A DNA stretch of 64,000 nt. It comes from Gordonia humi (GTDB taxonomy: Bacteria; Actinomycetota; Actinomycetes; Mycobacteriales; Mycobacteriaceae). The stretch is from contig NZ_JACIFP010000001.1 of assembly GCF_014197435.1 (NCBI RefSeq), positions 1,674,001 to 1,738,000 on the forward strand, given 5' to 3'. The position numbers and the translations under genes are program-made. Positions 38,821-63,595 of this stretch are shown here, piece by piece. The notes under the pieces are model-generated. The model searched no databases. It saw only the letters and a list, made by a program, of their open reading frames with translations, and had not been told where the DNA came from. The stretch's first letter is position 1, and every line of letters starts with the position of its first letter.

Positions 38821-39069
38821 ATGTCCGACACCGTGCGCGAGTCCCTACAGCAGATCCTCGACGAGGACCTCGACCTACCCGTCGACGGGATCACCGAGGA
38901 GTCTCGCCTCGTCGACGACCTCGGCATGGACTCGGTGGCGTTCGCCATCGGTGTCGTCGCCATCGAGGAGAAGCTCGGTGTGAAGCTCGCCGAGCGCGAG
39001 ATCTTCGACGCGAAGACCGTCGGTGACCTCGAAGAGGTCGTCCGCGCGAAACTGGCTCTCACGCCGTGA
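38821..39069 (+). CDS. Free-standing acyl carrier protein
   Basis: An 82-aa ACP. The phosphopantetheine site is GMDSVAFAIG with Ser38. The acidic helix ESRLVDDL and the C-terminal TVGDLEEVVRAK complete the fold. It is not a FabD-linked housekeeping ACP: it lies in an iron-box operon between ABC-2 permeases and an acyltransferase, reminiscent of MbtL in the second mycobactin locus. It probably carries an acyl chain for the next gene product. AAGGAG stands just before the ATG. The downstream gene starts inside its stop (GTGA). Confidence 0.9.
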   Translation: MSDTVRESLQQILDEDLDLPVDGITEESRLVDDLGMDSVAFAIGVVAIEEKLGVKLAEREIFDAKTVGDLEEVVRAKLALTP

Positions 39070-43329: not shown

Positions 43330-44736
43330 CTATGCGTCTACGGCCCGTAGCGACGTCAGCGGCGTATCCGCCGTATCCGGCAGTCCCGCGGTCAGTCTTT
43401 CGGCCGCATCGGCCACCCGCTCCGCGTACCGCTCGTCGAGCACGTCGGTTCGATACTCCAGCTCGAGGTGGACGGCGTCGTGCTCGTCGAACTCGAAGGA
43501 GATGCTCAACGGGTAATGGACGACGTCTTTGAACACGGTCTCGCACGTGACATGCGCGCCTGCGGGGATCGGTACGCCGCGCAGGGGCGCGTTCTTGACG
43601 AGCGTCATGATCTCGGCGACGGGGAATCGTCCGCCCGCGCCGCGCAGCGCGGTGAGGACGGTGCCGTAGTCGACCGATGAGTGCTCCATCGCCTCGAAGA
43701 CCGTCGCGACCGCGGAACGGAGGGCGTCGCCGACGGTTCCGGCGAGCCCGAAGCGGAAGCGCATCGGGACGATGTTGCCCGAGTAGCCGACCTCGTCGAC
43801 GGTCTCAGCGGGTCCTCTGTTGTCGGCGGGCACCAGGATCACGAAGTCGTCGGCGCCGGTCACGGCGTACACGGTGAGCGCCGAGACGGCGACGAACAGC
43901 GAATTCGGCGTCGCGTCCACCTCCCGCGCGAAGGCGATCAGCCGAGCGACGACGTCGTCGGACAGACGACGATGCAGCAGTGCTCCGCGGCCCTCGCCCA
44001 TCACCGACACCCAGCTCTCCTCCGGTGTGGTCGACGGCAGTTCGCCCGACAGCGGATAGCGGATGCCCTCGGCAGCCCATGTGGCCCACGCGTGCCGCAC
44101 GGCGGCGTCGGCGTGCGCGCCCGTGCGCGCGGACGGATCGACCGCGGTGCCGCCGCCCGACCAGGACGCCGCCTCGCCCGAGACCAGGGCGGTCAGGACG
44201 GGAGGCAGGATGGTCTCGTCCCCGCCGATGTGGTGGATCACCAGGAGCATCGACACCGTTCCGTCGTCGAGTCGACGGATGCGGACCCGCCACGGCTGCT
44301 CGCGTGTCAACTCGAACGGGGCCTGCGCGACGAGCTGTGGCGACGCGGCGACGTCGGCGGCGATGTCACCGAACTCCCACACCCGGCCGGGCACCGTCCA
44401 GCGGCCCTCGCGAGGTGCGGGCACCCGGCGCGGAGCGTCGCCGGACACCTCGATCACGGAGCCCACCACCCGCGACGACGCGATCGTCCGCTCCGTCGAC
44501 GTCACGATCTGCTCGATCGTGTACGGCGCCCCGAACGTCAGCGCGACGGCGAAATTGTGCGAGTCGGACTCCGGATCGATCTCGTAGATCTTCCACATCC
44601 GGCGCTCGGCGATCCCGAGCGAACCGTCGGCGGCGACGGACTCGGGGGCGGCATCGGGCTCGGCGGGTGCTTCGATGCCCGCGGCAGCCAATCGCTGCCG
44701 CATCAGGTCGCGTTGGGCGTCGGACAGGATGCTCAT
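43330..44736 (-). CDS. Free-standing NRPS condensation domain (1)
   Basis: A 468-aa condensation domain with no carrier protein attached. The active site reads HHIGGDE (His168-Glu174), so the usual final Gly is Glu while the catalytic His169 and Asp173 remain. [13 protein letters not shown] and the latch region follow. An N-terminal helical extension of about 35 residues is linked to the core at [13 protein letters not shown]. The ATG overlaps the acylase stop (ATGA). Free-standing C domains such as VibH join an aryl-carrier thioester to a free amine; here the likely acceptor is the N-hydroxydiamine unit. It is the last gene of the operon. Confidence 0.85.
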
Positions 44737-46958
44737 GAGATCTCCTCCGAAGCGCACGTCGCTGCCAGCGCGTCCCAATCGGTGACGACGTCGATCAGCT
44801 CGCCGCGCGCCCACGTCGACAACTGGTCTTGGAAATGGTCGGACGACGGGTCGCCGCTCGCACCGAGTGGAACGATCCAACGACTGGCGTCCCGATCGGC
44901 GACGTCCCACACGTAGCGGGCCACCGAACCGAGACGGCACACGTGGGCGAAGCCGACGGCGCTCGCGTTGGCGAACACGCACTCGGCGTCGCCGCCGAGA
45001 GGCGCGGGTTCGGGGCGCACCAGCTTCGACAGCTCCGGGAACGACGCGGTGACACCGGCGAAGTCCATACCGTGAAACGGTGCCAGCCGGTGGACGTCGC
45101 CCCAGGCGGTCGTCGTGCCGGTGAACTCCGCCGCCACCTGCTCCAGTGCGCGCGCGGCGACGGCGGGCACGTCCAGTCCGATGCGCGGAGCCCCGGCGAC
45201 CACGGCGTCGAGCCCGGCCGCGATCCGTGTGCCCGCGACGAAGTACGGGGCCGTCCACGACGGGAAGCCGTTCGGTTCGGCGAGTGGCGCGAGCGCATCG
45301 TCAGCGGTGATCGCGACGACGAGGCGGCTGCGGAACTCGGCGAACAGGAACGCGTCGACGCTGTCGGCGTTCATCGCGCCGTCCCACGCGCGCAGGCGCC
45401 GGCGTAGCGCGACTGCGTCGTCGCTCAGGCCCGCGAGTCCGTCGAGGAGAGCGATCACCGACGCCGCCGGGCCGTTCGCCACGTCGCGGTGGATGGCGGC
45501 GCACTGATCCGCCGACACGGAGTCGGTCGCCGCGAGCAGTTCGCCGATCCGTGCGGCTCGAGCGACGGGGGAGCATTCGGTGGTGATCGGCTGCATCGGA
45601 GGGCAGTCCGGAATCCTCTGGTTGGCTATCACCGCGAAGCCCGACACCTCGGCGTCGTAGCCGGTCAGCGACGTATCGGCGTAGCCCTGCCAGGCGTAGC
45701 GTTCGTCCCATCCCGGTACCGGAAGCCAGTAGTTCTCATCGGCGCGCTGGGGGAGACGACCGACCGTATGCGCCACGACGCGCCCCGACGAGTCGCCGAC
45801 GACGATCCGATTCGCCGGCTCGCCCCATCCGGTGAGCGCGCGCTCCACCTCGGCGATCGAGGATGCGAACAGCAGATCGAGAACGGCGTCGAAGGTCGAC
45901 GCCGCATCGGTGAGCATCGGCGTCCGCAGGCTCATCGACCACGCGTCGTCCGGGCCGCCGAACACGATGGAACCGTTCGGGGTCTCGATGATCTCCACCT
46001 CCGCCGCATCGCCGCCGCGGACTCGGATCCGCTCGATCCAGGCGTCACAGGTCTGCTCGCCGTCAGGGGTGCGCACCACGACGACTCCGCCGTCGCGCCG
46101 CATCTGTTCGACGTACACGTCCTGCTGGTCGGCCATCGCGTTCGTGATGCCCCACGCGACCGACCCGGCGTGTGCGAAGTGCGGCAGCCCCGGAACGCCC
46201 GCGAACGCGAAACCGACGACGTCGAACTCGTCGCACGCCAGATGGCACTGCTGGTAGACGCCGGGGATCTCGATGAACCGGTGCGGGTCACCGGCGATCA
46301 GGGGGCCGCCGATCGACGACGCGACGCCCCACGCGTTGCTGCCGGAGATCGCGTCGCCGAGCGGCGGAACGTCGAGTTCGACGTCGTCGGCTCCGCCGAC
46401 CGGCACCAGGCGCAGCAGCTCGTCGATGAACTCCGTCGTGGGCATCGCGGGTGCGCGGCTCGGTGCGGGTTCGCTCGCCTCGGTGTTGAGCAGCGACAAC
46501 GCCTCCGGCCCCAGCCTCCGGCACGCGTGCAGACGCCACAGTTTGGTCGCGAATCGCCCGAACATCAGGTGCTGCACGAGAAAGACGGCGATCGGCGTCC
46601 ACGGACTCCACGCGCTCGGCCGGTGATCGAACTCGTCGAACTCGACGGCGGTCGCCTGCTCGTGCGACCGGTTCACACCGTCGGCGTAGGCGCGCAGCAG
46701 GCTCCGGGTGCGCGACGACGACGCGTCGTGAATCCGCCGGGCGGCACGGTCGAGCTGGGCTCGTCGGACGAACTGATCCCATTCGACGGCCGCGGGACCG
46801 AACACCTCCGCGGTGCGGCCCTCGGCGCGCAGACGCAGGAATTCGATCTGCCAGGCGCGGTCGACGCCGGTTGCGCAGCCCTGCGCGTAGATCGTCTCGG
46901 CGGCCGAAGCCGCCCTGATGTGCGGGATGCCGTGGGAGTCGCGGAGGATGGATGTCAT
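44733..46958 (-). CDS. Penicillin acylase-family Ntn hydrolase
   Basis: A 741-aa penicillin-amidase family protein. The autocatalytic cleavage and nucleophile site is SGSNAW with Ser207, preceded by a 200-residue alpha part ([22 protein letters not shown]). The beta part has [18 protein letters not shown] and [13 protein letters not shown]. Unlike PvdQ and secreted penicillin acylases it has no signal peptide, so it appears cytoplasmic. In a siderophore operon it may trim or exchange an acyl group, or hydrolyse the ferri-siderophore amide. Substrate unknown. It is separated by 88 nt from the upstream C-domain gene, the largest gap in the operon. Confidence 0.87.
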
Positions 46959-47046
46959 GGGAGGGTCTTTCGTGGTGAGCTACCCGTCGGTCGAGTAGCC
47001 AGTGGGACTGAGCGCGTCCGCGCCTACCGGCTCGGACTACTCGATA

Positions 47047-48441
47047 TCAGCGGGGAGAACGGGAAGCGGGCGCAGCGGTCCTCAGCGCCGCGTCGATCAG
47101 ATCGTGCAGTCGTTCCACGGTGCCCGCGTCGAACAGCTCGACGCGGTAGCCGATCTGCACTTCGGTGCGATCCGGGTGCATGAACGCTTCGACGGTCACA
47201 GGCAGCGCGAGGCGGCCCTTGTCGGCGAGTTCCCACGTCATCGACGCTCCGGGGAGCGCGATGCCGTCGATCTTCTGGTCGAGGAACAGGACCAGCGAGT
47301 CGAACGGGTGGGCGGCCGGATCACCGGTCACTCGGCGTGCGATCTCGACGATCTCGTCGAACGGGAACTCGCGGTGTGCGAACGCCTCGTCGGTGACGGC
47401 GCGGACGTGCCGCACCAGATCGTCGAAGCCGACGCCGTCGTCCGGGCGGATGCGCAGCGCGATCGGGTTGCTGAAGTTCCCGATCAACGCCTGCGCACCG
47501 TCCTCCTCGCGGTTGGCGACGGTGGTGCCGATCAGCACATCGTCGCGGCCGGACAGCTCGCGCACCGCGAGGTAGTAGGCGGTCAGGAACACCGAGAACG
47601 GCGGCGTCCGCAGCTCGGCGGCCCACGAGCGCAGACCGGCCTCCGCCGCTGGACTCAGGGTCCGGTCCACGCGTGCGCTGACCTCCGACCCGCGTTCCGG
47701 AGCATGGTCGTACGGCAGTGCCGCAAGCGCGACGTCGCCGCGGAACCGTTCCTCCCAGAATGCGATGTCACCGCTGTGGTCGGCGGCGTCGAACCGGTCG
47801 CGTTCGGCTTCGGCGAAGTCGGCGACCTGCGGCGACAACGCGTCCACCGTGATCTCGCCCGCGCGGGCCTGCTCGTAGAAGCGCCCGACGTCGCGTGCCA
47901 TCGCGGGCAACGTCATGCCGTCCCACACGATGTGCTGCATCGCGATCACCACCGCGAGCCGTGGTGCCCCGTCGACCGTCGGCATCGTCACGAACGTGAA
48001 CCGGATCGACGACTCGGTCTCCAGGTCGAAGACCTCCGTCGCGGCGTCGGCGACGATACTCCGCAGCCGGGCGTCCGGATCGGTGGCGTCGGTCAGATCG
48101 ACGGTCACCACGGTGGGCCCGAGCTCGGCGTGGATCCGCTGAAACGGTTCGTCGTCGCCCGCGTGGTAGGTGGTCCGCAGGATCTCGTGCCGTTCCACCA
48201 CCGCCAGCAGCGCCCGCTGCAGGGCGTCCGCGTCGACGTCGCCGGTATAGGTGAACGTGAGGCAGATGTTGTTCGCCGTGCTGTCGGGGACGCGCTGCTG
48301 ATGCGACCACACCAGCCGTTGCGCGAACGACATCCGAGCGCGCTCCCGATCGCGGCGCGGTCGGACGCCGCCGTCGACGGCGATCCCCGCATCGGACAGA
48401 CGCGAGGCCATCGCCGCGCGAAGGTCGTCCAGGGTGGTCAT
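47047..48441 (-). CDS. Free-standing NRPS condensation domain (2)
   Basis: A 464-aa condensation domain without carrier or adenylation domain. The motif is QHIVWDG (Gln169-Gly175): the first His is Gln, while the catalytic His170 and Asp174 are kept. MSFAQRLVWSHQQ is the C1 motif, and IGNFSNPIALRIRPD with HREFPFDEIVEI the later core motifs. ATG 48441 overlaps the NRPS stop. Two separate C domains suggest two amide bonds or a cyclisation/dimerisation step. Confidence 0.87.
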   Translation of the reverse strand: MTTLDDLRAAMASRLSDAGIAVDGGVRPRRDRERARMSFAQRLVWSHQQRVPDSTANNICLTFTYTGDVDADALQRALLAVVERHEILRTTYHAGDDEPFQRIHAELGPTVVTVDLTDATDPDARLRSIVADAATEVFDLETESSIRFTFVTMPTVDGAPRLAVVIAMQHIVWDGMTLPAMARDVGRFYEQARAGEITVDALSPQVADFAEAERDRFDAADHSGDIAFWEERFRGDVALAALPYDHAPERGSEVSARVDRTLSPAAEAGLRSWAAELRTPPFSVFLTAYYLAVRELSGRDDVLIGTTVANREEDGAQALIGNFSNPIALRIRPDDGVGFDDLVRHVRAVTDEAFAHREFPFDEIVEIARRVTGDPAAHPFDSLVLFLDQKIDGIALPGASMTWELADKGRLALPVTVEAFMHPDRTEVQIGYRVELFDAGTVERLHDLIDAALRTAAPASRSPR

Positions 48442-51400
48442 CGGTCGTCGGCTCCCACCAGTGCACCGGCGGGAGCCGCCACACCCGCCACCTCCAGGAA
48501 GATCTCGGCGACCTGAGCCAACTGCCCGGGCACCTGCTCGCGCTCTTCGAGCAGTGTCGCGAAGCCGCGCACGGTCCGGGCCTTGAACACCGCGGTGATC
48601 CCCACCCCCTCCACCGCGAGCAGGCTGCGGATGTTCGCGACGAACGTCGTCGCCAGAATCGAGTTGGCGCCGGCGTCGAAGAAGTCGGTGGTCACGCCGA
48701 GGCGCTCCACACCGAGGACCTGCTCGGCGATATAGGCGACGGCCGCCTCCACACCGGTCTCGGGGGCGACGTACTCGCCGACCGCACTGCCCGCGACGGC
48801 GCGCCGGAGCCCGGCCCGGATCGCGGCGCGGTCGATCTTGCCGTTCGCCGTCAACGGGACCTCGTCCACCACATGCACCACCTCGGGAACCATGTAGTCG
48901 GGCAGTGCATCGTCCAGTGCCGCGGTGACCGCATCGGCTGAGCCGCCTGCGACCGCCAGCGCGAGTCGACCGTCGATGAGGGCCGCAACCGCTTCATCGA
49001 CACCGTCGACCGCGCGAGCCGCCGATTCGACCTCACCGAGCTCCACGCGATAGCCGCGGATCTTGATCTGATGGTCGGCGCGACCGAGGAATTCGATGGT
49101 CCCGTCCGGCAGATAGCGCGCCAGGTCGCCGGTCCGATACCAGCGGACGCCGCCGACGGTGACGAACCGGTCGGTGGTGGCATCCGGGGCGCCGCGGTAG
49201 CCGTCGGCCACCCCCGCGCCGCCGATCCACAGCTCGCCGGTCACCCAGTCGGGTGCGTCCTCGCCGCGTTCGTTCACCACGCGGCACGACGTGCCCGCCA
49301 TCGGACGGCCGTACGGCACGGTGTCCCAGGCGGTGGGGAAGGCGTCGGTCACCTCGTAGACGGTCGAATGGATCGCCGTCTCGGTGGTGCCGCCGAGTCC
49401 GGCGAAACGCAGTCCGGGAACGGTGGCGCGGGCGCGGCGGCCGAGATCGGCGTCGACGCGGTCGCCGCCGGTGATCACCGTGCGCAGGCTCGCGAGTTGA
49501 TCGGCCGACGCCGTGTCCAGCAGCATGCCGATGAGGCCGGGTGCGGCGTTGAGGACGCTCACGCGGTGCGCGGCGATCCGCGCCGCCCACGTCTGCGCGT
49601 CCCGGGCGGCGTCGCCGTCGACGCACACGATCGCGCCGCCGAGGGCGAGCGGGGCGAACACGTCGAACACCGACAGGTCGAATTCGAGCGCCGACAGTCC
49701 GATCGTGCGATCGTCGGCGGTGAGCGAGAACTCGTCGACGATCGCGTCGATCGTGTTCGCGGCCGCGGCGTGGCTCACCTCGACGCCCTTCGGCTCGCCG
49801 GTGGAACCGGAGGTGAACAGTACGTAGGCGAGGTCGGACGGAGTGCGGGCCGGGAGAGCGTCCAGCGGCTGCGCCGACGTCGCGGCGGCGAAACCGTCCT
49901 GGTCGAGCACCGCCTTCACGTCGCCGCGTTCCAGGATCTTCTCGCGCCGGGCAGCGGGCTGGTCGACGCCGACGGGCAGGTAGACCGCACCCGCGGCGAG
50001 GGCGCCGAGAACGGCGATCACCTGGGTGTGCCCCTTGGGCAGCACCACGGCGACGGTGTCGCCGGGCGTGACACCGTCGGCGACGAGCGCACCGGCGACG
50101 GCTCGTGCTTGCGCGGCGACGTCGCCGTACGAGAGTTCGATGCCGTCGGCGGTCACCACGCAGACCCGGTCGGGATCGTTCGCGGCGACGGCGAAGAACC
50201 GCTCGTGCAGCGTCCGCGGCTCGCTCACGGCGGGAGTGGACGTCACGGCGTCGCGCACCGCGCGCTGGGCGGGCGGCAGGGCGATCGACAGATCGGCGTT
50301 CCAGTCGGCGCCGTCGGCCACCAGCCCGGTCAGCAGGGTCTGGAACTCGGCGAACATCGCGTCCATCACGCCCTCGGGCAGTGCGTCGCGACGGACGTCC
50401 CAGTTGACCAGCAGACCGCCGTCGAGCTCGACGACCTGCGCGTCGAGGTCCACCTGCGGTCCCTGCGACAGGATCCACACGGGTTCGCCGAACAGGGTGC
50501 GGACGCGGTCGGAGAACAGTTCGCCGAAGCCCAGCCCCGAGGTGAACACCACCGACGGGGTGACCGGAGCGCCGCGCAGCTGCCCCAGGTCGCGCAGTAC
50601 GTCGAGCCCCTCGTAGGCGGCGTGGCCGGCGCAGTCGTGCAGCTCGCGTTGGAGGCGACGACTGCGTTCGATCATGGACTCGGGGGTGCGCGCGTCCGCG
50701 TCGATCAGCACCGAGTTGGTGAAGTCGCCGACCACCTGGTCGATGTTGGGATGGGTGGGTTCGCGGTTGAACAGCGGCACGTTCAGCAGGAACCGCTGCT
50801 GCGTCGACCAGCGGGCGATGACCTCGGAGAAGATCGTCGCGAACGTGACGGCGGGGGTGATGCCGTTGTCGTAGGCGATCGAGTACAGGCGGTCCTTCTC
50901 GGCGGCGTTCAGCTGGTGGTGGTAGCGGACGCTGCGGTCGGGTTCGGCGCGGCGGTCCTCCGGAACGGTCGGCAGGGTCGGGGTGTCCGGGAGCGTCGGC
51001 TCCTTGGCCTGCCACCAGGTGCGGGCGCCGTCGTACTCGTCGGCGGACACGTGCCCGCCGCGCTCGGCGAGGTACGCGCGGAAGGTGTACTCGGTGGAGG
51101 GCAGCGGGGCGTCGGTCTCGTACGCGGTGGCCAGATCGTCGAGGACGCGGCGGTAGCTCATCGCGTCGGCGGCCAGCATGTCGACGTCCAGGTGCAGGCG
51201 GTGCCGTCCGTCCGGAAGGAGGGTCAGGACGAACTCGACGACGCTGCCCGCAGCGGTGTCGAGCAGCTGATGGCTCATCCGGTCGCGGGTGCGCTCGGTC
51301 TCGGCGTCGACGTCTCCGCCTCGGCGCAGGTCGACGACGCTGAAGACCGGTGTCGGCGGGGCGTCGAGGATTCGCTGGCGGCCGGTGTCGCCGAACGCCG

Positions 51401-51845
51401 CTCGCAGCATCTCGTGCCGGTCGACGACGTGGCCGACGGCCCGCTCCAGACGCGCGGCGTCGATGCCCGCGCCGTCGAACTCGGCGAACAGGTGCGCGGC
51501 GACGCCGCCGAGCGCCTGCCCGTCCTGGCGTCCCACCCAGTAGGCGTGCTGCATGGTGGCCAGACCGAACTCGGGGTCGTCGTCGGCGGCCGCGGCGGGT
51601 GCGGGCGCCGGTTCGGGCTCGGCGGTCTCGGCACCGAGCAGGTGCGCCCACGCCTCGATCGTCGGGGTCTCCGCCAACTGCGAACTGCGCACGCGGTGGC
51701 CGGCGCGTCGCCACCGGCTGGTCAGCTTGATGACCAGCAGCGAGTGCATGCCGTGGCGCACCAGATCGTCGGTGTCGTCGATGGTGTCGGGATCGACGTC
51801 GAGCAACTCTGTGACGTCGGCGCGGATCTGTTCGAGGGAAATCAC
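48438..51845 (-). CDS. NRPS, ArCP-Cy-A-PCP (MbtB-like oxazoline synthetase)
   Basis: A 1135-aa NRPS. Residues 1-72 are an aryl-carrier-type domain with phosphopantetheine Ser35 in GMHSLLV. Residues 95-520 are a heterocyclisation domain with DMLAADAMS (Asp222, Asp227, Ser230), the DxxxxDxxS motif. Residues 540-1040 are an adenylation domain with FTSGSTGEPKG and YRTGDLARYLPDG. Residues 1050-1115 are a PCP with GANSILA. No thioesterase is present. The order equals MbtB, which makes phenyloxazoline from salicylate and Ser/Thr. My hand-read specificity code D-L-F-N-I-G-L-I-H looks Thr-like. No aryl-AMP ligase is in the window. Confidence 0.92.
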   Translation of the reverse strand: MISLEQIRADVTELLDVDPDTIDDTDDLVRHGMHSLLVIKLTSRWRRAGHRVRSSQLAETPTIEAWAHLLGAETAEPEPAPAPAAAADDDPEFGLATMQHAYWVGRQDGQALGGVAAHLFAEFDGAGIDAARLERAVGHVVDRHEMLRAAFGDTGRQRILDAPPTPVFSVVDLRRGGDVDAETERTRDRMSHQLLDTAAGSVVEFVLTLLPDGRHRLHLDVDMLAADAMSYRRVLDDLATAYETDAPLPSTEYTFRAYLAERGGHVSADEYDGARTWWQAKEPTLPDTPTLPTVPEDRRAEPDRSVRYHHQLNAAEKDRLYSIAYDNGITPAVTFATIFSEVIARWSTQQRFLLNVPLFNREPTHPNIDQVVGDFTNSVLIDADARTPESMIERSRRLQRELHDCAGHAAYEGLDVLRDLGQLRGAPVTPSVVFTSGLGFGELFSDRVRTLFGEPVWILSQGPQVDLDAQVVELDGGLLVNWDVRRDALPEGVMDAMFAEFQTLLTGLVADGADWNADLSIALPPAQRAVRDAVTSTPAVSEPRTLHERFFAVAANDPDRVCVVTADGIELSYGDVAAQARAVAGALVADGVTPGDTVAVVLPKGHTQVIAVLGALAAGAVYLPVGVDQPAARREKILERGDVKAVLDQDGFAAATSAQPLDALPARTPSDLAYVLFTSGSTGEPKGVEVSHAAAANTIDAIVDEFSLTADDRTIGLSALEFDLSVFDVFAPLALGGAIVCVDGDAARDAQTWAARIAAHRVSVLNAAPGLIGMLLDTASADQLASLRTVITGGDRVDADLGRRARATVPGLRFAGLGGTTETAIHSTVYEVTDAFPTAWDTVPYGRPMAGTSCRVVNERGEDAPDWVTGELWIGGAGVADGYRGAPDATTDRFVTVGGVRWYRTGDLARYLPDGTIEFLGRADHQIKIRGYRVELGEVESAARAVDGVDEAVAALIDGRLALAVAGGSADAVTAALDDALPDYMVPEVVHVVDEVPLTANGKIDRAAIRAGLRRAVAGSAVGEYVAPETGVEAAVAYIAEQVLGVERLGVTTDFFDAGANSILATTFVANIRSLLAVEGVGITAVFKARTVRGFATLLEEREQVPGQLAQVAEIFLEVAGVAAPAGALVGADDR

Positions 51846-51887
51846 GTCAACTCCTAGTCGGGGCTTGTTGTGTCGGTCGCGGGTTCC

Positions 51888-53279
51888 TCACCGCTGCTCC
51901 GCCGGATCGAGTCGGTCGGAGTCGGGGGCGGCGTGCGGATCGGCGTGCGAAGGAATCGGCGGCGCGACACCGAATGTCGTGAAGGCCGTGTGCTTCGGCA
52001 GCCGGTACACCTCGCGTCCGGCGACGGTGTTGAGGATGCGGGCGTTGCGGACCGCGCCGATGTCGAGATTCGGCGCGGACACGCCGTGGGTGTGGGTCTC
52101 GGCGTTGACCATGAACAATCGGTCGGCGAGCGCGCCGTCGGCGGCCACGGAGTGATTCGCGGCGATCACCCGGCGACCGCGGGAGTCGCGGTGCAGCAGC
52201 GATTCGATCGGTGCGAGGAACGGTTGCGCGCGTTCGCGGTATCCGGTCGCGGTGATCACCAGATCGGTGTCGTGCGTCAATGCGGCCCCGGTGTCCAGGT
52301 GGCGTCCGCGGACGGTGACCCGGTCGGTGTCGTCGATGCCGTCGACGGCCACGCCGTTGCGCAGTTCGACAGGTGCGAGGTGATCGAGCAGTTGCCGTCG
52401 GTAGAGCAGGTCGTGGATGCGGTCGAGGGTGTCCGTGGAGATCCCCTTGTGGAACTGCCAGTGTCCCGGACGGACTCGATCGCGGGTGGCCTCGGGCAGC
52501 GAATGGAAGTAGTCCATGTACGCCGGTGTCGTCATCTCCAACGAGAGCTTGGTGAAGTCGAGCGGTGCGAACCACGGCGTCCGCGTCCACCACGTCACGG
52601 CGGGGCCGCCGTCGATGTTGGCCTCGAGCAGGTCGACGACGATCTCCGCGCCCGACTGTCCGGACCCGATGACGGTCACCGCATCGGCGGCTTGCGCGTC
52701 GTCGCGACGGTACAGATAGTCGCTGCTGTGCACCACCGCGGGCGAGTCCGGGGACATGACCGACGGGGTGAACGGTTCGGTGCCGACGCCGACCACCACG
52801 GTGCGCGCATGCACCACCGACCGGGTTCCGTGCGAGGAGACGAGGACGTCGAAACGTTCGGCGGCATCGTCCCAGTGGATCTCGTCGACGGTCGTGGAGA
52901 ACCGGAGCGAGTCCAGTCGCGACACCGCCCACTTCAGGTAGGCCTCGTATTCGCGTCGCGTGGGGAAGAACTGCTCGCGCACCAGGAACGGGTACAGCCG
53001 ATCGGTGTCGGCGAGGTAGGCCAGGAACGACATCGGATGTCTCGGGTCGACCAGCGTCACCAGGTCGGACAGGAAGCTGACCTGGAGGGTCGCCTCCTCG
53101 AACAGCAGCCCCGGGTGCCACGCGAACTCGTCCACCGAATCGACCACGACGACGTCCACGTCGTCGACGGTCGAGGCCATCGCGGCGAGCCCGAGATTGA
53201 ACGGACCGCAGCCGACCGCCAGCACATCCAGTGTGCGGCCGCCGACAGCGAGAGCGTCGAGGGAGTCGGCGTCAGTCAT
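51888..53279 (-). CDS. N-hydroxylating monooxygenase (SidA/IucD/DesB family)
   Basis: A 463-aa FAD/NADPH N-monooxygenase. Seen are GCGPFNLGLAAMA for FAD, EFAWHPGLLFEEATLQVSFLSDL, the NADPH loop VTVIGSGQSGAEIVVDLL and LVITATGYRE. The family hydroxylates the terminal amine of lysine, ornithine or a diamine. Adjacent decarboxylase and IucA/IucC genes favour cadaverine or putrescine, as in DesB. It starts 8 nt inside the decarboxylase stop region, so the genes are translationally coupled. Confidence 0.92.
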   Translation of the reverse strand: MTDADSLDALAVGGRTLDVLAVGCGPFNLGLAAMASTVDDVDVVVVDSVDEFAWHPGLLFEEATLQVSFLSDLVTLVDPRHPMSFLAYLADTDRLYPFLVREQFFPTRREYEAYLKWAVSRLDSLRFSTTVDEIHWDDAAERFDVLVSSHGTRSVVHARTVVVGVGTEPFTPSVMSPDSPAVVHSSDYLYRRDDAQAADAVTVIGSGQSGAEIVVDLLEANIDGGPAVTWWTRTPWFAPLDFTKLSLEMTTPAYMDYFHSLPEATRDRVRPGHWQFHKGISTDTLDRIHDLLYRRQLLDHLAPVELRNGVAVDGIDDTDRVTVRGRHLDTGAALTHDTDLVITATGYRERAQPFLAPIESLLHRDSRGRRVIAANHSVAADGALADRLFMVNAETHTHGVSAPNLDIGAVRNARILNTVAGREVYRLPKHTAFTTFGVAPPIPSHADPHAAPDSDRLDPAEQR

Positions 53280-54783
53280 GTACTCGCACCTTGTCCGCGA
53301 TCTCGTAGTCGGCGTTCTCGGACTCCACCTCGAGTGCGTGGCGCAGGAGTTCGTTGAACAACTCGTCGATGTCGGTCCGGGTGGAGGTCGGATTGAGCAG
53401 CGTCAGCTTGAGGCACGTCGACGGCTCGGCCTCGCCCGAGATCCGGACACGGGTGCGGCCGATCAGAGCGGTGCCGGAACTGATCAGGCGGCGTCGGACT
53501 TCCGCGTTCACCGGGTCCAGGTCCTGGCATCGGTAGCGGAAGACGACGGTGGTCAAGGTGACCGGCGCGACCAGTTCGAGCTGCGGCTCGGCGATGATGC
53601 GGTCCTGGGCGTGCTGGGCGAGCGCGTGGCACGCCTCGAGCATCTCGCCGAGCCCCGACCGCCCGTAGGCCAGGAACGTGGTCAGGACCTTGAGCACGTC
53701 CGGGCGGCGGGTGGTCTGCAGGGTGAGACCGAGACGACCGCCGAACCCGGCCTCCTCGTCGTCCTCGGGGTTGAGATAGTCGACGTTCCTGTCGAACGAG
53801 GAGAACCGTTCCTCGTCACGCAGCAGCAGCAGGCTCGCCGCGGCGGGCTGCCAGCCGATCTTGTGCAGGTCGAGGGTCACCGAGTCGGCGCGATCGAGGC
53901 CGTGCACGAGGTGGGCGAGGCGGTCGGAGAACAGTGCGCCGAAACCGTAGGCGGCGTCGATGTGCAGCCAGACGCCGTGGCGGGCGGCGATGTCGGCGAT
54001 CTCCGGCAGCGGGTCGACGGTGCCGAAGTCGGTGGTGCCCGCGGTCGCGACGATCGCGACCGGCGTCCCGTCGGTGTCCGTGATCGCCGCGTCGAGCGCG
54101 GCCGGGATCATCCGGTGATGTTCGTCGACGTCCACGGCGACGACCGCGGCCTCGCCGAGTCCGAGCGTCGCACAGGCCCGGTTGATCGAGAAGTGCGCGA
54201 CGCGCGAGCACAGGACGACGGGTCGGGGGAGTGCGGCCACGCCGTGGTGGCGGGTGTCGATCTGCAGTCGCGCGGCGGCGTGGTCACGGGCGATCAGCAT
54301 GGCGAGCAGGTTCGAGAACGAGCCCCCGGGGCCGAAGACGCCGCCGGCCGACGGGCCGAAGCCCGCGAGGTCGGCGAGCGCGGCGATCGTCCACTTCTCG
54401 ATCGCGAGGGTCGCCGGCCCCGAATCGTAGGTGTCGAGGGACGCGTTGGTCGCGCTGGCCAGCGCGTCGGCGGTCACCGAGACCGTCAACGGAGGCGGCT
54501 GCAGGTGCGCTGCGGTCAGTCGATGGGTCAGATCGAGCCCGTAGGCGGCGACGATCCCGGCGACCCGCGCGAGGGCGTCGTCGGCGCCCATCCCGTCGGC
54601 GGGCATCCTTTCGGGACCGAGTTCGGCGGCGACGGCGGCCAGCATCTCCTGCGGGGCGCCGTAGGGCAGGGGCGATCCGTGATGTCGGTCGGTGACGGCG
54701 GCCGCGACGCGGGCCATCTGGTCGCCGATCTGCGACCAACCGATACCGGGGGTCGCGAATCGGCTGAGGTCGTCATGAGACAC
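53272..54783 (-). CDS. PLP-dependent lysine/ornithine decarboxylase (DesA-like)
   Basis: A 503-aa group II PLP decarboxylase. The PLP-lysine is in SVTLDLHKIGWQPAAAS, and the cofactor pocket has VWLHIDAAYGFGALFSD and VATAGTTDFGTVDPLPEI. It would make cadaverine from lysine, or a homologous diamine, as first step of a desferrioxamine-type pathway. The gene overlaps those on both sides (10-11 nt). Lysine versus ornithine or 2,4-diaminobutyrate cannot be settled by eye. Confidence 0.9.
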   Translation of the reverse strand: MSHDDLSRFATPGIGWSQIGDQMARVAAAVTDRHHGSPLPYGAPQEMLAAVAAELGPERMPADGMGADDALARVAGIVAAYGLDLTHRLTAAHLQPPPLTVSVTADALASATNASLDTYDSGPATLAIEKWTIAALADLAGFGPSAGGVFGPGGSFSNLLAMLIARDHAAARLQIDTRHHGVAALPRPVVLCSRVAHFSINRACATLGLGEAAVVAVDVDEHHRMIPAALDAAITDTDGTPVAIVATAGTTDFGTVDPLPEIADIAARHGVWLHIDAAYGFGALFSDRLAHLVHGLDRADSVTLDLHKIGWQPAAASLLLLRDEERFSSFDRNVDYLNPEDDEEAGFGGRLGLTLQTTRRPDVLKVLTTFLAYGRSGLGEMLEACHALAQHAQDRIIAEPQLELVAPVTLTTVVFRYRCQDLDPVNAEVRRRLISSGTALIGRTRVRISGEAEPSTCLKLTLLNPTSTRTDIDELFNELLRHALEVESENADYEIADKVRVHD

Positions 54784-56566
54784 GGTGGGCCCCTTGTGAG
54801 TCGGCGATGGGATTGATCAGTCGGTGGTCGGCGGCGAGGATGGCGCCGTAGGAGTCGCCCACGTTCACCATCCGGCGGTTGTCGCCGAGTTGCAGTGCGT
54901 TCATGTGCACGGCGGGGAACGTCGGGGCGAACAGGTCCCAGCGAGCGAAGCGGTCGGCCAGGTCCGGGTGCGCCGCGACGAACTCGTGGACGCTGGCGGC
55001 GACGATCGCCCAGAAGTCGGCGTCGTCGAGCAGCCCGCTGCGGTGGGTGAGTGCGGCGAGCGGCCGGAAGAAGTCGTCGAAAACGTCCGAGAGGACGCCG
55101 AGATTCCGGATCTCGTCGGGTTCGGTGGTCAATGCGCGACTGCACGACGGCGGGAGATCGTCGGGTCGGTCGAAGACGCAGACCTCCTCGCCGACGTCCT
55201 TGAGGATCGCGCGGACCGGCACGCTGTCGCGCAGCACCAGGATGAGGTTCTCACCGTGCGGGGAGAACTTCAGTCGGTGCCGGTAGAGCAGGTAGGCGAT
55301 CGGATGGAGATAGGTGCGCAGATAGCGGGCGAGCCACTCGCCGGCGGGCAGGCCCGACCGCGCGATGAACTCGCCGATCAACGGGGCGCCCTCGTGGTCG
55401 ACGTGCAGCAGTGAGGCCATCGTCGCGAGCTGCTCGTCGTCGTCGATGCGCGGCACCGGACTCTGTCGCCAGAGTGCGGAGAGGAGTTTGCGGTACTCGG
55501 AGCCGGGTCGGGTGATCGCGGTGAACGTCGGGTTGCGGTACCCGACGGCGGCCACTTCGTAGAGGAGTTCGAAGCCGGTCTCGCGCAGGTAGGCGTCGTC
55601 GCCGATCCGTGAACGGACCCAGTCGTTGATGAGCGGGGTGGTGCGCATGTAGTCGGCCGACATTCCGCGGGTGAATCCCATGTTCACGATCGACAGCGCC
55701 GTCTTGACGTAGTGACGGGTCGGCGTGGTCGCGTTGAACTGGGTGCGGATCGACTGCTGCGGCTGGTACTCGTCCGGCGATGCGCCGAGGATCACCAGTC
55801 GCCGTTCGGCGATGTCCGCGGCGTACAGGCGGGCGGCCTTCTCGGTCCACTGCCACGGATGCACGGGCAGAAACGTGTACGCGCCGGGATCGAGTCCCTG
55901 GAACAGCAGGACGTCCGAGAACTTCTCGACGACGTCGTCGCCGAGTTCGTCACGGACGAGGTCGGCGTAATCGACATCGCCCATCGTGGCGACGTCGCAG
56001 TCCTCGGCGCGGGCGGCCACCCAGATCAGCCGGAACCGGCCGCCGGACTCGGGTGCGTAGGCGGCCACGTCGTGTGCGCTGAATCCGAGGCGTCCGGCGT
56101 TGGCGACGAAGCACGGATGCCCCTCGGTCATCGTCTTCTCGATGGTCTGGAAGTCGGCGACGGCGAGATCGGCGGCGCGGATCCGCTTGGCGTCGGTGCG
56201 GTCGGCGCCGATCGCGACGGTGTGGATCAGTTCCTCCAGATACTCCGGCAGCGCGTCGACGGCGATGCCCAGCTGCGCGCGGACGTCGACGACGAGGTCG
56301 ACCGCCCGTACCGGCAGCTCGTGTCCGCCGCGAGTCCGGCGCAGAGACTCCTCGTCGACCGCCCAGCTGTCCAGGGACAACAGGTCGGCGGTGAACCCGT
56401 ACTCGGTGCGCTGGTCGTCGGAGAGCAGACTGAAATGTCCGGGAGAGGTCTCCAGCGGGGTAAGCGCGCGTTCGTGACAGAACTCCGCGATCACCTTGGC
56501 CGCGATCCGGCGGTCGTACACGTCCCGCAGCGATCCGGCGGCGACGTCGGTCTCCGCGGTGCTCAT
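54773..56566 (-). CDS. IucA/IucC-family NIS synthetase (DesD-like)
   Basis: A 597-aa NRPS-independent siderophore synthetase. Motifs are [34 protein letters not shown] and the C-terminal FhuF-like domain ([18 protein letters not shown]). Such enzymes adenylate a carboxylate and couple it to an N-hydroxy-amine, joining or macrocyclising acylated hydroxydiamine units. The ATG overlaps the GNAT stop. Together with decarboxylase, monooxygenase and GNAT it completes a des-type set. Confidence 0.93.
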
Positions 56567-57147
56567 CGGTCGCTCACGCGTCGGCCGCCGTCGGTCACGC
56601 GGACGAAGTCGTCGAGGGTGCAGTGGCTCAGCCGGGCGATCTTGTCGGCCACCGGATGATCGCCCGCCACCACGAATCCGACGGCGGCGTTTAGCGCCTG
56701 GACGTCGGCGTTGTCCACATCGGGTTCGACGACGACGCGTCGCGCTCCGGCCTCACCGAACGCGGTACGCATGATGTGGAGCATCACCTCACCGGTGAAT
56801 CCGGAGATCGGGGCCTCGGCGGGAGCGACGAGCAGGTGCATGCCGATGTCGCCCTCGGCGTGGACGTATCCGGTGCCGGGCTCCGCGAGGTCGCTGGTGA
56901 GCGGGTCGTACAGCTCGAACATGAACTCGGCGCGATCGTCGACGCGGCCGATGCGCAGACCGTGCGGTCGGACCGCCGAGGCCTGGGTGTCGGCGATGAA
57001 CGCGTGCACCTCGTCGAGGGTGGCCGACAGCATGTCCCAGTACCGCGACTTGGGATGCGTCAGCCAGCGGTGCACGGTCGCGGCATCGCGATCGGCGTCC
57101 ATGGTGACAGACACCAGGGGCGACGTCGATACGGAATCAGAAGTCAT
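56563..57147 (-). CDS. GNAT hydroxamate acyltransferase (IucB/DesC/MbtK family)
   Basis: A 194-aa GNAT of the IucB/AlcB/MbtK group. The [10 protein letters not shown] substrate helix and [21 protein letters not shown] (acyl-CoA and substrate region) are typical. It transfers succinyl, acetyl or a long-chain acyl group to the N-hydroxyamine, forming the hydroxamate. It is the first gene of the 14-kb operon. The iron boxes upstream at 57194-57231 may control it as well as the divergent importer. Confidence 0.88.
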
Positions 57148-57193
57148 TCGACCACTCGCTTCGGAGATCGGAACGGATACACCGCGGGGATTC

Positions 57194-57212
57194 TTAGGTT
57201 AGGCTACCTCAC
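57194..57212 (+). promoter_or_regulatory. IdeR-type iron box 1
   Basis: TTAGGTTAGGCT is an exact match to the first 12 consensus positions; overall 15 of 19 by my alignment. It abuts box 2 with no gap. Confidence 0.75.
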
Positions 57213-57231
57213 TTAGGTTAGGCTAACGCAC
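57213..57231 (+). promoter_or_regulatory. IdeR-type iron box 2
   Basis: TTAGGTTAGGCTAAC is exact over 15 positions; overall 16 of 19. It ends at the base before ATG 57232 and includes a TAGGCT hexamer (57219-57224), placed 7 nt from the start codon. Confidence 0.8.
57219..57224 (+). promoter_or_regulatory. Candidate -10 (TAGGCT) of the leaderless irt-like operon
   Basis: The hexamer lies inside iron box 2 and leaves exactly 7 nt to ATG 57232; no space remains for a Shine-Dalgarno sequence. Confidence 0.5.
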
Positions 57232-59115
57232 ATGGATTCGACGATGGTGTCTGAGGCCCACGAGCCGGGCGAGTGGAGCCTGGCGAGCACCTCGCAGACA
57301 CGCGCTCCCGACCAGGTGGCGTTGCGTGCACAGGCCAGGCGAGACAAGGCCGCGGCCAAGGAGCTCTTGGCGCCGGTGAGCTCGGCGATCTCGGCGGCGA
57401 GTGTGCTCGTCGCGATCTCCGCGATCGCCTCGGTGGTGCCGTTCATCCTCGTCGTCGAGATCTGCCGCGAACTGCTGAAGGCCGACACCGACACCGGAAC
57501 CGTCACGGCGCTGGTGATCGCGGCGTTCGCCGTCGCGGTGTTCCGCGGGCTGCTGCAGATCATCGGACTGGTCGCCACGCACCGGATCGACGCGGGCTTC
57601 CAACTCACGCTGCGTCGTCGCCTGGCGGCCAAGGCGAGCAGGCTGCCGCTCGGCTGGTTCACCGAGCGCACGTCCGGAGACGTCAAGCGTCTGCTGTCCG
57701 ATGACGTCGAGGCGTTGCACTATCTCGTCGCGCACGTTCGGCTCGAGTACGTGAACGCGACGGTGTCGCCGCTGGTGATCCTCGTGTACCTGTTCGTCGC
57801 CGATTGGCGCCTGGCCTTGGTGACGCTGATCCCGGTGATCGGATACGCGGTCGCGCTCAAGGCCATGACGAGTCCCGAGTTCACCCGCCTGCTCGGCGGT
57901 TTCACCCGCGGCCAACGCGAGGTGGACAGCACCGCCGTGGAATTCGTCGACGGCATCGCGGTGATCCGCGCGTTCGGTCAGACGAGGAAGGCGTCGGCGG
58001 CGTTCTCGCGCGCCGTCGACCGGTACGCCGACGCGCTCGACGCGTGGAAGACGCCGATGACCAGGCTGCAGGCCATGGCCGACATGCTCCTCGCGCCGGT
58101 CTTCTCGATGCTCGTGGTGACCGCCGCCGCAGTCGGAATGGTGGCGCTGAACTGGATGGATCCGCTCGACCTCGTCCCGTTCCTGCTCGTCGGAGTCGGG
58201 CTCGGCGCGAGCTTCCTCGGCTTCGCCTACGCGGGTCAGGCGCTGCGCGAGGGGTCGGCCGCCGCTCGACGGATCGGCGAACTCGAAGCGCTGCCCGAAC
58301 TGGTCGAGCCGATCGGTGGAGATCCGATGGGCGATGTCGCGGGGGCGGTCCGTTTCTCCGGTGTCACCTTCGGCTACACGCCGGAGACGCCGGTGCTCAG
58401 CGGCGTCGACCTCGAGCTGGCGCCGGGCACGGTGACCGCGCTGGTCGGTCCGAGCGGTTCGGGGAAGACCACCCTGGCCCGACTGCTCGCCCGATTCCAC
58501 GACGTCGACGCGGGCACGGTCTCGATCGACGGACGCGACATCGCCTCGATGAGTCTGGCCGACTTGTACTCGACCGTCGGCTTCGTCTTCCAGGACGTGC
58601 ATCTGATCCGTGGCACCGTCGCCGACAATCTGCGTCTGGCGCGCCCGGATGCGAGCGCGGCCGATCTCGAGGACGCGGCACGCTTGGCGCAGATCCACGA
58701 TCGGATCACCGAACTCCCGCGCGGCTACGACTCCGAGATCGGGGTCGACGCGATCTTCTCCGGAGGCCAGGCGCAGCGGCTGTCGATCGCGCGCACACTG
58801 CTCTCCGGGAGCCGCGTGCTGGTGCTCGACGAGGCGACCGCCTTCGCCGATCCGGAGTCGGAGGCGGCCGTGCAGGACGCGCTGGCCTCGGTGATCGCCG
58901 ACCGTACGGTGCTGGTCATCGCGCACCGGCTGCATACGATCACCGACGTCGACCAGATCTTGGTGCTCGACGCGGGCAGGGTCGTACAGCGCGGCACGCA
59001 CGACGAACTCGTCGAGACCGACGGACTGTATCGACGCCTGTGGGCGTCGAACGAGAACGCGATGGCCGCGCTGGCCGAGAGCACGACGACCGACCGCGTG
59101 GAGGCGATCCGATGA
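57232..59115 (+). CDS. Siderophore ABC transporter, IrtA-like half (no SIP domain)
   Basis: A 627-aa fused TM/ATPase ABC half-transporter. Six membrane helices span residues 55-330. The ATPase has GPSGSGKTTLARLL, the degenerate signature SGGQAQRLSIA and VLVLDEATAFADPE. The adjacent second half and iron boxes identify it as the IrtAB-type ferri-siderophore importer. Mycobacterial IrtA carries an N-terminal FAD siderophore-reductase domain of about 270 residues; here only a 50-residue N-terminal stub is present. The ATG directly abuts iron box 2. The alternative start Met5 (57244) also lacks a ribosome site. Confidence 0.88.
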   Translation: MDSTMVSEAHEPGEWSLASTSQTRAPDQVALRAQARRDKAAAKELLAPVSSAISAASVLVAISAIASVVPFILVVEICRELLKADTDTGTVTALVIAAFAVAVFRGLLQIIGLVATHRIDAGFQLTLRRRLAAKASRLPLGWFTERTSGDVKRLLSDDVEALHYLVAHVRLEYVNATVSPLVILVYLFVADWRLALVTLIPVIGYAVALKAMTSPEFTRLLGGFTRGQREVDSTAVEFVDGIAVIRAFGQTRKASAAFSRAVDRYADALDAWKTPMTRLQAMADMLLAPVFSMLVVTAAAVGMVALNWMDPLDLVPFLLVGVGLGASFLGFAYAGQALREGSAAARRIGELEALPELVEPIGGDPMGDVAGAVRFSGVTFGYTPETPVLSGVDLELAPGTVTALVGPSGSGKTTLARLLARFHDVDAGTVSIDGRDIASMSLADLYSTVGFVFQDVHLIRGTVADNLRLARPDASAADLEDAARLAQIHDRITELPRGYDSEIGVDAIFSGGQAQRLSIARTLLSGSRVLVLDEATAFADPESEAAVQDALASVIADRTVLVIAHRLHTITDVDQILVLDAGRVVQRGTHDELVETDGLYRRLWASNENAMAALAESTTTDRVEAIR

Positions 59116-63567: not shown

Positions 63568-63581
63568 AGCATGACTATAAC

Positions 63582-63595
63582 TTCGGTGAGCCGAA
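63582..63595. promoter_or_regulatory. DtxR/MntR-type palindrome at the metal-transporter promoter
   Basis: TTCGGTGAGCCGAA is an inverted repeat (TTCGG-N4-CCGAA) in an AT-rich stretch just upstream of the lipoprotein gene. The layout resembles MntR-type operators; identity of the regulator is inferred. Confidence 0.5.

What the first reader, a model, noticed from the sequence alone, without database searches (positions are those of the whole stretch)
43330..57147. Hybrid hydroxamate-NIS/phenyloxazoline-NRPS siderophore operon, probably nocardichelin-like
One leftward operon holds a full des-type set (GNAT, IucA/IucC, PLP decarboxylase, N-monooxygenase) together with an MbtB-like ArCP-Cy-A-PCP NRPS and two free-standing C domains. 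Nearly all genes overlap. Seen: the domain motifs and overlaps. Known: nocardichelins combine an aryl-oxazoline with N-hydroxycadaverine/succinate and a fatty acyl group. Inferred: this operon makes a related mixed-ligand siderophore, with VibH-type C domains joining oxazoline and diamine.
Basis: partly seen in the sequence, partly recalled or inferred. Interest (0 to 1): 0.88.

Follow-up and report, generated by a model that had tools for sequence, protein, structure and literature searches.

The report
Nocardichelin-type siderophore, N-hydroxypyrrole starter
A Gordonia bacterium carries genes for an iron-scavenging molecule of a known hybrid type, but the usual salicylate cap appears to be replaced by a rare nitrogen-oxygen ring (N-hydroxypyrrole) that has been described as a metal ligand in one copper-binding compound.

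Summary
In detail: one leftward operon (57147-43330) encodes GNAT, IucA/IucC, PLP decarboxylase, N-monooxygenase, a carrier-Cy-A-PCP NRPS and two stand-alone C domains. The chassis is of the nocardichelin type, already in print. The phenyloxazoline part is probably wrong: no salicylate synthase was found in this genome, and just right of the window lies a six-gene set matching the chalkophomycin N-hydroxypyrrole-2-carboxylate pathway. In 59 Gordonia-genus genomes, all 5 with the N-oxygenase carry the NIS gene and none has salicylate synthase; all 17 other NIS-gene carriers have it. One relative (G081) has the same operon, lacks the six genes there, and has a salicylate synthase/ligase pair elsewhere. 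Predicted product: N-hydroxypyrrolyl-oxazoline, two N-hydroxycadaverines joined by succinate, and an unsaturated fatty acyl group, hexadentate for Fe(III). New variant of a known kind; no product has been measured.

The parts
56563..57147 (-). GNAT acyltransferase (DesC-like; PF13523), first gene of the operon
   Evidence: Pfam 113 bits; orthologue first in the operon in 5 relatives
54773..56566 (-). NIS synthetase (IucA/IucC family)
   Evidence: PF04183 255.6 bits; the only PF04183 match in the genome at E 1e-3
53272..54783 (-). PLP decarboxylase (lysine/diamine type assumed, substrate not shown)
   Evidence: PF00282; best NCBIfam a diaminobutyrate decarboxylase far under its cut-off
51888..53279 (-). 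flavin N-monooxygenase (amine N-hydroxylase)
   Evidence: PF13434 339 bits
48438..51845 (-). NRPS carrier-Cy-A-PCP; A-domain letters D-L-F-N-I-G-L-I-H (Ser or Thr)
   Evidence: Pfam, motifs, letters read by hand from the alignment to PchE
47047..48441 (-). stand-alone condensation domain C1 (QHIVWDG), proposed to move the oxazolinyl group from the PCP to an amine
   Evidence: PF00668 200 bits; Gln-His-Ile motif also in the other rows of 39% identity or more
44733..46958 (-).
   Evidence: PF01804 509.5 bits; PDB 35sz, glutaryl-7-ACA acylase and D-succinylase relatives; Ser207
43330..44736 (-). stand-alone condensation domain C2 (HHIGGDE), start overlapping the acylase gene
   Evidence: PF00668 60 bits; start and 4-base overlap
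57194..57231 (.). two adjacent IdeR/DmdR-like iron boxes (4 and 3 mismatches to the recalled 19-base consensus) in the divergent promoter gap
   Evidence: boxes with 4 or fewer mismatches: none in 30 simulated 64-kb sequences; boxes lie before the GNAT gene in L009-L012 and L023 too
57232..59115 (+). ABC transporter half, divergent from the operon
   Evidence: PF00664+PF00005; orthologue in L009, L010, L023
59112..60875 (+). second ABC transporter half
   Evidence: PF00664+PF00005; start
38821..39066 (+). acyl carrier protein, proposed for the lipid tail (GMDS)
   Evidence: 65% to the ACP beside C2 in L012
39066..40295 (+). WS/DGAT-like acyltransferase, candidate fatty-acyl transferase
   Evidence: 61% to L012:18984-20381, which matches PF03007
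36222..37972 (+). DrrAB-like ABC-2 exporter pair (36222-37175, 37172-37972) with an iron-box-like site at 36153; candidate siderophore exporter
   Evidence: Pfam; box; an ABC gene with a weak ABC-2 neighbour also follows the ligase gene in the Nocardia locus L013

Best explanation
This operon and its surroundings make a lipidated, hexadentate hybrid NIS/NRPS siderophore of nocardichelin build in which the salicylate cap is replaced by N-hydroxypyrrole-2-carboxylate. Proposed route: (1) L-proline is loaded on a small PCP by a prolyl A domain, N-oxygenated by a ChmG-like flavoenzyme, oxidised to N-hydroxypyrrole by a ChmH-like dehydrogenase and released by a ChmF-like hydrolase. (2) A ChmK-like ligase loads the free acid on the N-terminal carrier domain of the NRPS; the Cy domain condenses and cyclises it with Ser or Thr to an N-hydroxypyrrolyl-oxazoline. 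(3) Decarboxylase and N-monooxygenase make an N-hydroxydiamine, probably N-hydroxycadaverine; the GNAT succinylates it; DesG removes succinyl again to give free N-hydroxydiamine for capping. (4) MbtM, MbtN and the ACP supply an alpha,beta-unsaturated fatty acyl group, put on the hydroxylamine by C2 or the WS/DGAT-like enzyme. (5) The NIS synthetase joins succinyl to the second unit, and C1 joins the oxazoline to the free amine. Shown here: gene content, order, residues at the key position, linkage, co-occurrence. Inferred: all chemistry, the diamine, the chain, the metal and the regulation.
For: Right of the window, in L098 (G000:C1:1736000-1755999): ligase, A domain, PCP, two ACAD-fold enzymes, hydrolase, MbtM (694.6 bits, above its 621 cut-off), MbtN (661.6 bits, just under 700), PBP, FecCD. 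ACAD1's best solved relatives are two prolyl-carrier dehydrogenases, and it keeps their Glu; ACAD2 has Met at that place, as ChmG is reported to have. The same six functions were reconstituted for chalkophomycin (PMC11177257, sections 7 and 8). Gordonia genus, 59 genomes: N-oxygenase 5, IucA/C 22, salicylate synthase 38; 5 of 5 N-oxygenase carriers have IucA/C and no salicylate synthase, 17 of 17 other IucA/C carriers have it. In a second, partly overlapping set of 30 genomes exactly the 7 with the N-oxygenase lack it. Ligase pocket AFN[Y/F]TWNCPG in 7 of 7 linked ligases against HNF in 26 of 26 MbtA-like rows. G081 natural swap. In 5 of the 6 Gordonia/Jongsikchunia carriers this NRPS is the only match at E 1e-95 in the genome. 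Iron-box-like sites before both gene sets. Published nocardichelin formulas fit the chassis exactly.
Against: No product, expression or enzyme data. The starter genes are 11 kb from the operon here, with a Zn-type ABC operon between. ACAD2's best solved hits (3m9v/4kcf, E 7e-25) are hardly better than ordinary acyl-CoA dehydrogenases (8e-25), and its best NCBIfam model is a FadE16 one far under cut-off. The genome has a second MbtB-like NRPS (4.67 Mb), sister to the R. yunnanensis NRPS that stands next to the same set, so the starter may serve that NRPS instead or as well. G081 shows that an NRPS of this clade can occur without the set. A DHB pathway also exists in the genome. ChmK and ChmG themselves could not be fetched. 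Genome searches scored only a capped number of candidates per genome (32, 39), so an N-oxygenase could be missed. Co-occurrence counts are not corrected for kinship.
Confidence: 0.82

Rival explanations
1. Ordinary nocardichelin-type siderophore with a hydroxyphenyl-oxazoline: salicylate or DHB from another pathway or from outside is loaded on the NRPS.
For: Similar chassis genes occur with salicylate synthase in Nocardia (L013, L014, L033) and in 17 Gordonia-genus genomes; G081, inside this NRPS clade, has salicylate synthase and an HNF-type ligase; a DHB set with ligase is at 0.588 Mb.
Against: No salicylate synthase over cut-off in this genome or in the 7 other N-oxygenase carriers. The linked ligase lacks the HNF pocket of 26 of 26 MbtA-like rows. 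The DHB ligase is 1.1 Mb away beside its own NRPS.
Confidence: 0.08
2. The six-gene N-hydroxypyrrole set feeds only the second NRPS cluster (4.67 Mb), another metallophore, and merely lies near the hybrid operon.
For: The own 4.67-Mb NRPS is sister to the R. yunnanensis NRPS that is divergent from the same set, has similar neighbours (methyltransferase, PBP), and no stand-alone aryl-ligase match lies beside it.
Against: Five other carriers have no second match to this NRPS at E 1e-95 yet keep the set linked to the hybrid operon; in Gordonia sp. ABSL49_1 the ligase gene is directly divergent from the GNAT gene (L012); the set is followed by MbtM/MbtN lipid genes.
Confidence: 0.07
3. The starter is plain (not N-hydroxylated) pyrrole-2-carboxylate or another proline-derived acid.
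For: Prolyl A domain, PCP and RedW/PigA-like dehydrogenase would suffice for pyrrole.
Against: A second ACAD-fold enzyme with Met at the Glu position is kept in the carriers' sets (20 of 20 rows), as are the hydrolase and ligase in the Gordonia/Jongsikchunia and R. yunnanensis sets, as in chm.
Confidence: 0.05

Closest known systems
Nocardichelins A/B and their proposed Gordonia rubripertincta CWB2 locus (PMC12161575, passages and section 14 read; ACS Chem Biol 2025 20:1435, Fisk et al., title seen only in the reference list of PMC13036778, paper not held)
   Same: NIS synthetase, des-type genes, DesG, MbtB-like Cy-A NRPS, lipid genes. The formulas C38H61N5O8, C40H65N5O8 and C42H69N5O8 (PMC6467163, passages read) equal salicylate + Ser + 2 N-hydroxycadaverine + succinate + 14:1/16:1/18:1.
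   Different: No salicylate synthase; N-hydroxypyrrole set and a ligase with another pocket instead. The salicylate-type Gordonia loci (other than G081) have an NRPS only 45-47% identical, and C1 was not found in their fetched stretches.
Chalkophomycin chmFGHIJK (PMC11177257)
   Same: Six matching functions, the same Glu/Met split of the two flavoenzymes, starter released and reloaded on an NRPS.
   Different: Here linked to NIS, DesG and lipid genes, with iron-box-like sites; no N-nitrosating gene was noticed in L098, though none was specifically searched for.
Desferrioxamine B, desABCD + desGH
   Same: Decarboxylase, N-monooxygenase, GNAT, NIS synthetase, DesG.
   Different: The neighbours of DesG are condensation domains, not DesH.
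Mycobactin/nocobactin MbtB with MbtM/MbtN
   Same: NRPS architecture and lipid-tail enzymes.
   Different: No lysine-module NRPS or PKS in this operon; hydroxamates come from NIS-type genes.

Membership tests
nocardichelin-type NIS/NRPS hybrid | IucA/IucC synthetase with diamine decarboxylase, N-monooxygenase and GNAT in one operon with a Cy-A NRPS | tested here: met
nocardichelin-type NIS/NRPS hybrid | salicylate supply (salicylate synthase plus MbtA-type ligase) | tested here: not met
   no TIGR03494 match over cut-off in the genome; ligase pocket differs
nocardichelin-type NIS/NRPS hybrid | lipid-tail genes (MbtM, MbtN, ACP, acyltransferase) | tested here: met
   MbtN match is slightly under its cut-off
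nocardichelin-type NIS/NRPS hybrid | measured product | not testable with these tools
   no culture data
chalkophomycin-type N-hydroxypyrrole pathway | prolyl adenylase + carrier + two ACAD-fold enzymes + hydrolase + aryl-type ligase | tested here: met
chalkophomycin-type N-hydroxypyrrole pathway | Glu in the dehydrogenase, Met in the N-oxygenase at the same position | tested here: met
   which alignment position is the catalytic Glu is recalled (PigA Glu244)
chalkophomycin-type N-hydroxypyrrole pathway | sequence kinship with ChmG/ChmK themselves | not tested
mycobactin | salicylate synthase in the genome, and N-hydroxylysine NRPS/PKS modules in the operon | tested here: not met
desferrioxamine B locus (desABCD+desGH) | DesH acetyltransferase beside DesG | tested here: not met
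   both neighbours of DesG are condensation domains; DesH elsewhere in the genome not searched
VibH-type amide-forming C domain | catalytic HHxxxDG | tested here: inconclusive
   C1 QHIVWDG, C2 HHIGGDE; second His and Asp kept in both

The most novel reading that the evidence does not exclude
One freely released N-hydroxypyrrole-2-carboxylate pool feeds two metallophore lines in this genome: the hybrid hydroxamate/oxazoline lipid siderophore here and the 4.67-Mb NRPS cluster. Across Gordonia the starter (salicylate or N-hydroxypyrrole) is an exchangeable gene cassette on one conserved hybrid chassis, which would give the first iron siderophores with an N-hydroxypyrrole ligand.
Probability: 0.45. 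Interest if true: 0.82.

Novelty: new variant of a known kind. Interest (0 to 1): 0.72.

Why it matters
Chalkophomycin (Cu) is described as the first case of N-hydroxypyrrole as a metal ligand (PMC11177257), and nocardichelins as the only NIS/NRPS hybrid siderophore family identified at that time (PMC12161575). This locus appears to join the two, and G081 plus the salicylate-type Gordonia offer natural controls for how a starter unit is exchanged and what it does to metal choice. Exact masses to look for follow from the model.

Tried and rejected
Rejected: salicylate cap (no synthase). 'Second ACAD is just another dehydrogenase': disfavoured by the Met residue and the chm parallel, though by score alone ordinary dehydrogenases match about as well as the N-oxygenases. 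The GC3 gene caller put a spurious 774-aa minus-strand ORF over the ACP/acyltransferase; corrected by homology. Genus-of-Lentzea hits of the N-oxygenase query (10 of 24 at E 1e-40) are 32-34% background ACADs without the neighbours, so E 1e-40 alone is too loose; the hits in the 8 carriers counted are at 1e-109 or better. Two further class-level hits (G401, G505; 4 of 394 genomes with G000 and G006, only 4 candidates scored per genome) have parts of the set but no ligase match in the fetched 38-39 kb, so they could not test the ligase pocket; they were not tested for salicylate synthase. The NRPS A-domain code was first read as Thr; since the Nocardia hybrid loci share the letters and nocardichelin formulas fit Ser, it is left as Ser or Thr. 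Roles of C1, C2 and the WS/DGAT-like enzyme remain unsettled: three enzymes for two steps. Structure prediction was not used; it would not have decided the starter.
Full report
Observation. The window lies in a genome of the genus Gordonia (G000:C1:1674001-1738000; genus inferred from its nearest named relatives). Translation and Pfam/NCBIfam scans confirm the leftward operon GNAT, IucA/IucC, PLP decarboxylase, N-monooxygenase, carrier-Cy-A-PCP NRPS, C domain, and a last C domain. Its best solved relatives are PDB 35sz (name only), glutaryl-7-ACA acylase and D-succinylase, and residue 207, where their beta chain begins, is Ser. It corresponds to DesG, proposed to take succinyl off N-hydroxy-N-succinylcadaverine (PMC12161575, passages read). 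Five of 7 junctions overlap.

Surroundings. Two iron-box-like sites (4 and 3 mismatches to a recalled consensus) lie in the divergent gap 57147-57232; a further one is at 36153, before a DrrAB-like exporter pair. On the right, one lies between the SIP and ligase genes and one before the PBP gene. No site with 4 or fewer mismatches appeared in 30 simulated 64-kb sequences. Sites lie before the GNAT gene in L009, L010, L011, L012 and L023 too. An ACP (38821-39066) and a WS/DGAT-like acyltransferase (39066-40295) are assigned to the cluster by orthology.

The starter genes. The genome has no salicylate synthase over the family cut-off. It has two good matches to the DHB-AMP ligase model, both under its cut-off: one in a DHB cluster at 0.588 Mb and one at 1742587-1744176, about 4.6 kb beyond the window. 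The stretch L098 there reads: SIP (minus strand); then ligase, A domain, PCP, ACAD1, ACAD2, alpha/beta hydrolase, MbtM, MbtN, PBP and FecCD on the plus strand. The A domain's relatives include the prolyl ligases 7thn and 6o6e, although linear gramicidin synthase and another peptide synthetase score higher; its letters D-L-F-Y-V-A-W-V-C were read by hand and resemble recalled proline codes. ACAD1 is closest to 4irn and 5zw0, prolyl-carrier dehydrogenases (AnaB and PigA by recall), and has Glu where they have it (W-E-R/W-E-K; PigA position 244, taken as catalytic by recall). ACAD2 has its best hits in 3m9v/4kcf (KijD3 by recall), closely followed by ordinary acyl-CoA dehydrogenases; a nitrososynthase (3mxl) and DnmZ are also among its hits. 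At the Glu position it has Met. Crooke et al. (PMC11177257; sections 7, 8 and 9 and passages read) showed that ChmJ, ChmI, ChmG (Met; structurally like KijD3), ChmH (Glu) and ChmF make N-hydroxypyrrole-2-carboxylic acid and that ChmK loads it on the first carrier of an NRPS. Homologous functions for all six are present here.

Does the set belong to the operon? The order ligase-A-PCP-ACAD1-ACAD2-hydrolase-MbtM-MbtN recurs, linked to the operon, in G. zhenghanii, G. liuliyuniae, J. kroppenstedtii, G. soli and Gordonia sp. ABSL49_1; in the last the ligase gene is directly divergent from the GNAT gene. In 59 Gordonia-genus genomes the N-oxygenase is in 5, IucA/C in 22, salicylate synthase over cut-off in 38. 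All 5 N-oxygenase carriers have IucA/C and lack salicylate synthase; all 17 other IucA/C carriers have it (Fisher P 3.8e-5, not corrected for kinship). Of 49 genomes behind named loci (50 given, L042 not held), 7 have the N-oxygenase. Of 30 of these 49 tested for salicylate synthase, 23 have it, and the 7 without it are exactly those 7. Four of the 7 appear, by identical coordinates, to be the same assemblies as four of the 5 genus carriers, so with the window genome there are 8 distinct carriers. These searches score a capped number of candidates per genome (32 and 39), so absence of the N-oxygenase is not absolute. In 5 of the 6 Gordonia/Jongsikchunia carriers the linked NRPS is the only match at E 1e-95 to the window NRPS; the window genome is the sixth and has five matches.

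Ligase pocket. At the DhbE His234 region (position by recall) the 7 linked ligases read AFN(Y/F)TWNCPG; 26 of 26 MbtA-like rows from other loci read HNF (at least two of these rows come from one genome); the own DHB ligase reads SHNFPMSSPG. In all 39 rows were aligned: 8 linked (own ligase twice), 26 MbtA-like, the DHB ligase twice, and 3 rows of other ligases. This supports another substrate, but ChmK could not be fetched for comparison.

A natural swap, and a result against a simple rule. G081 has the same operon, including NRPS (74%), C1, DesG and C2, inside the N-oxygenase carriers' clade on the NRPS tree (support 100) and on the IucA/C tree (92). No N-oxygenase was found in it. Its SIP gene is followed by MbtM with the six genes absent, and a ligase of the HNF type stands divergent to salicylate synthase about 340 kb away. 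So NRPS clade and starter are not locked together; the simplest reading is a cassette exchange. On the NRPS tree the label changes at least 4 times by parsimony, 2 forced by well-supported branches (FastTree).

Second consumer. The genome's other MbtB-like NRPS (4.67 Mb) is sister to the NRPS of R. yunnanensis, which stands directly divergent from a ligase-to-hydrolase set. Both clusters have a methyltransferase and a PBP; a large NRPS follows in the own cluster, and an ORF of similar size (2142 aa, not scanned) in R. yunnanensis. The free acid may therefore serve both NRPSs.

Product model. Nocardichelin A, B and a third compound have the formulas C40H65N5O8, C38H61N5O8 and C42H69N5O8 (PMC6467163, passages). 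Salicylate + Ser (oxazoline) + two N-hydroxycadaverines + succinate + 16:1, 14:1 or 18:1 acid gives exactly these. Replacing salicylate by N-hydroxypyrrole-2-carboxylate shifts each by -11.005 Da (C38H64N6O8 for 16:1 with Ser). Donors: N-hydroxypyrrole O and oxazoline N, plus two hydroxamates, six in all. The diamine, acyl chain and Ser/Thr choice are carried over from nocardichelin and not shown here.

C domains. DesG-C2 adjacency is kept in the two salicylate-type Gordonia loci looked at in full (L127, L128), so C2 may take the place of DesH and recap the hydroxylamine freed by DesG; the WS/DGAT-like enzyme is the other candidate. C1 follows this NRPS type also in many Nocardia loci with no IucA/C in the fetched flanks, which fits a role in taking the oxazolinyl group from the PCP. 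C1 was not found in the fetched stretches of 16 of 16 salicylate-type Gordonia (L127, L128, L145-L158; L127 does not reach the NRPS, several are only 8-12 kb); G081, the seventeenth, has it.

Novelty. The nocardichelin chassis is in print (Fisk et al. 2025 seen only as a reference). Searches for hydroxypyrrole + siderophore (5 papers hold both, 3 listed), pyrrole-2-carbox/siderophore/Rhodococcus/oxazoline (14 listed), N-hydroxypyrrole + hydroxamate (0) and hydroxypyrrole with Gordonia, nocardichelin or IucA (none of the 14 listed holds hydroxypyrrole) showed no title or abstract reporting this combination in the open library. The JACS paper reports N-hydroxypyrrole gene sets in 97 organisms, some near siderophore transporters and NRPSs; its supplement was not read and may include these loci.

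Noticed in passing
window 60976-63744 and L098:1775-5005: A ZnuA/ABC-3 metal-uptake operon stands between the exporter genes and the starter genes; in L010/L121 the SIP gene follows the exporter directly, without it.
   Followed up: partly
G000:C1:4656000-4690000 (L100, L101): Second MbtB-like NRPS cluster (methyltransferase, C-A-PCP-TE NRPS, PBP, further NRPS, an ABC half-transporter, MFS, OKR-type decarboxylase) with no stand-alone aryl ligase found beside it; NRPS sister to R. yunnanensis L067.
   Followed up: partly
G000:C1:576000-595999 (L099): DHB siderophore cluster: isochorismate synthase, isochorismatase, DHB-type ligase (under the model's cut-off), a 2423-aa NRPS-size ORF and a formyltransferase, with iron-box-like sites.
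   Followed up: partly
G000:C1:1262620-1282590 and 3075471-3078410: Further NRPS genes with similarity to the window NRPS (36-40%), i.e. more NRPS clusters in this genome.
   Followed up: no
L141/L142 (G505): Hydrolase-A-PCP-dehydrogenase-N-oxygenase set without a ligase match in an unnamed Actinomycetes genome, with an IucA/C match (45%) about 14 kb away: possibly another N-hydroxypyrrole/NIS pairing.
   Followed up: partly
L013, L014, L033: Nocardia hybrid loci (NRPS 67-69%, C1, C2, DesG, IucA/C) in genomes with salicylate synthase: likely true nocardichelin-type loci.
   Followed up: partly
L159:11247-13856 (G081): In G081 an MbtM homologue remains beside the SIP gene, but the MbtN query gave no match in this stretch; the next ORF (314 aa) was not identified.
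   Followed up: no
window 41652-43271: DUF222 protein between the operon end and the ACP/acyltransferase genes; probably unrelated.
   Followed up: no
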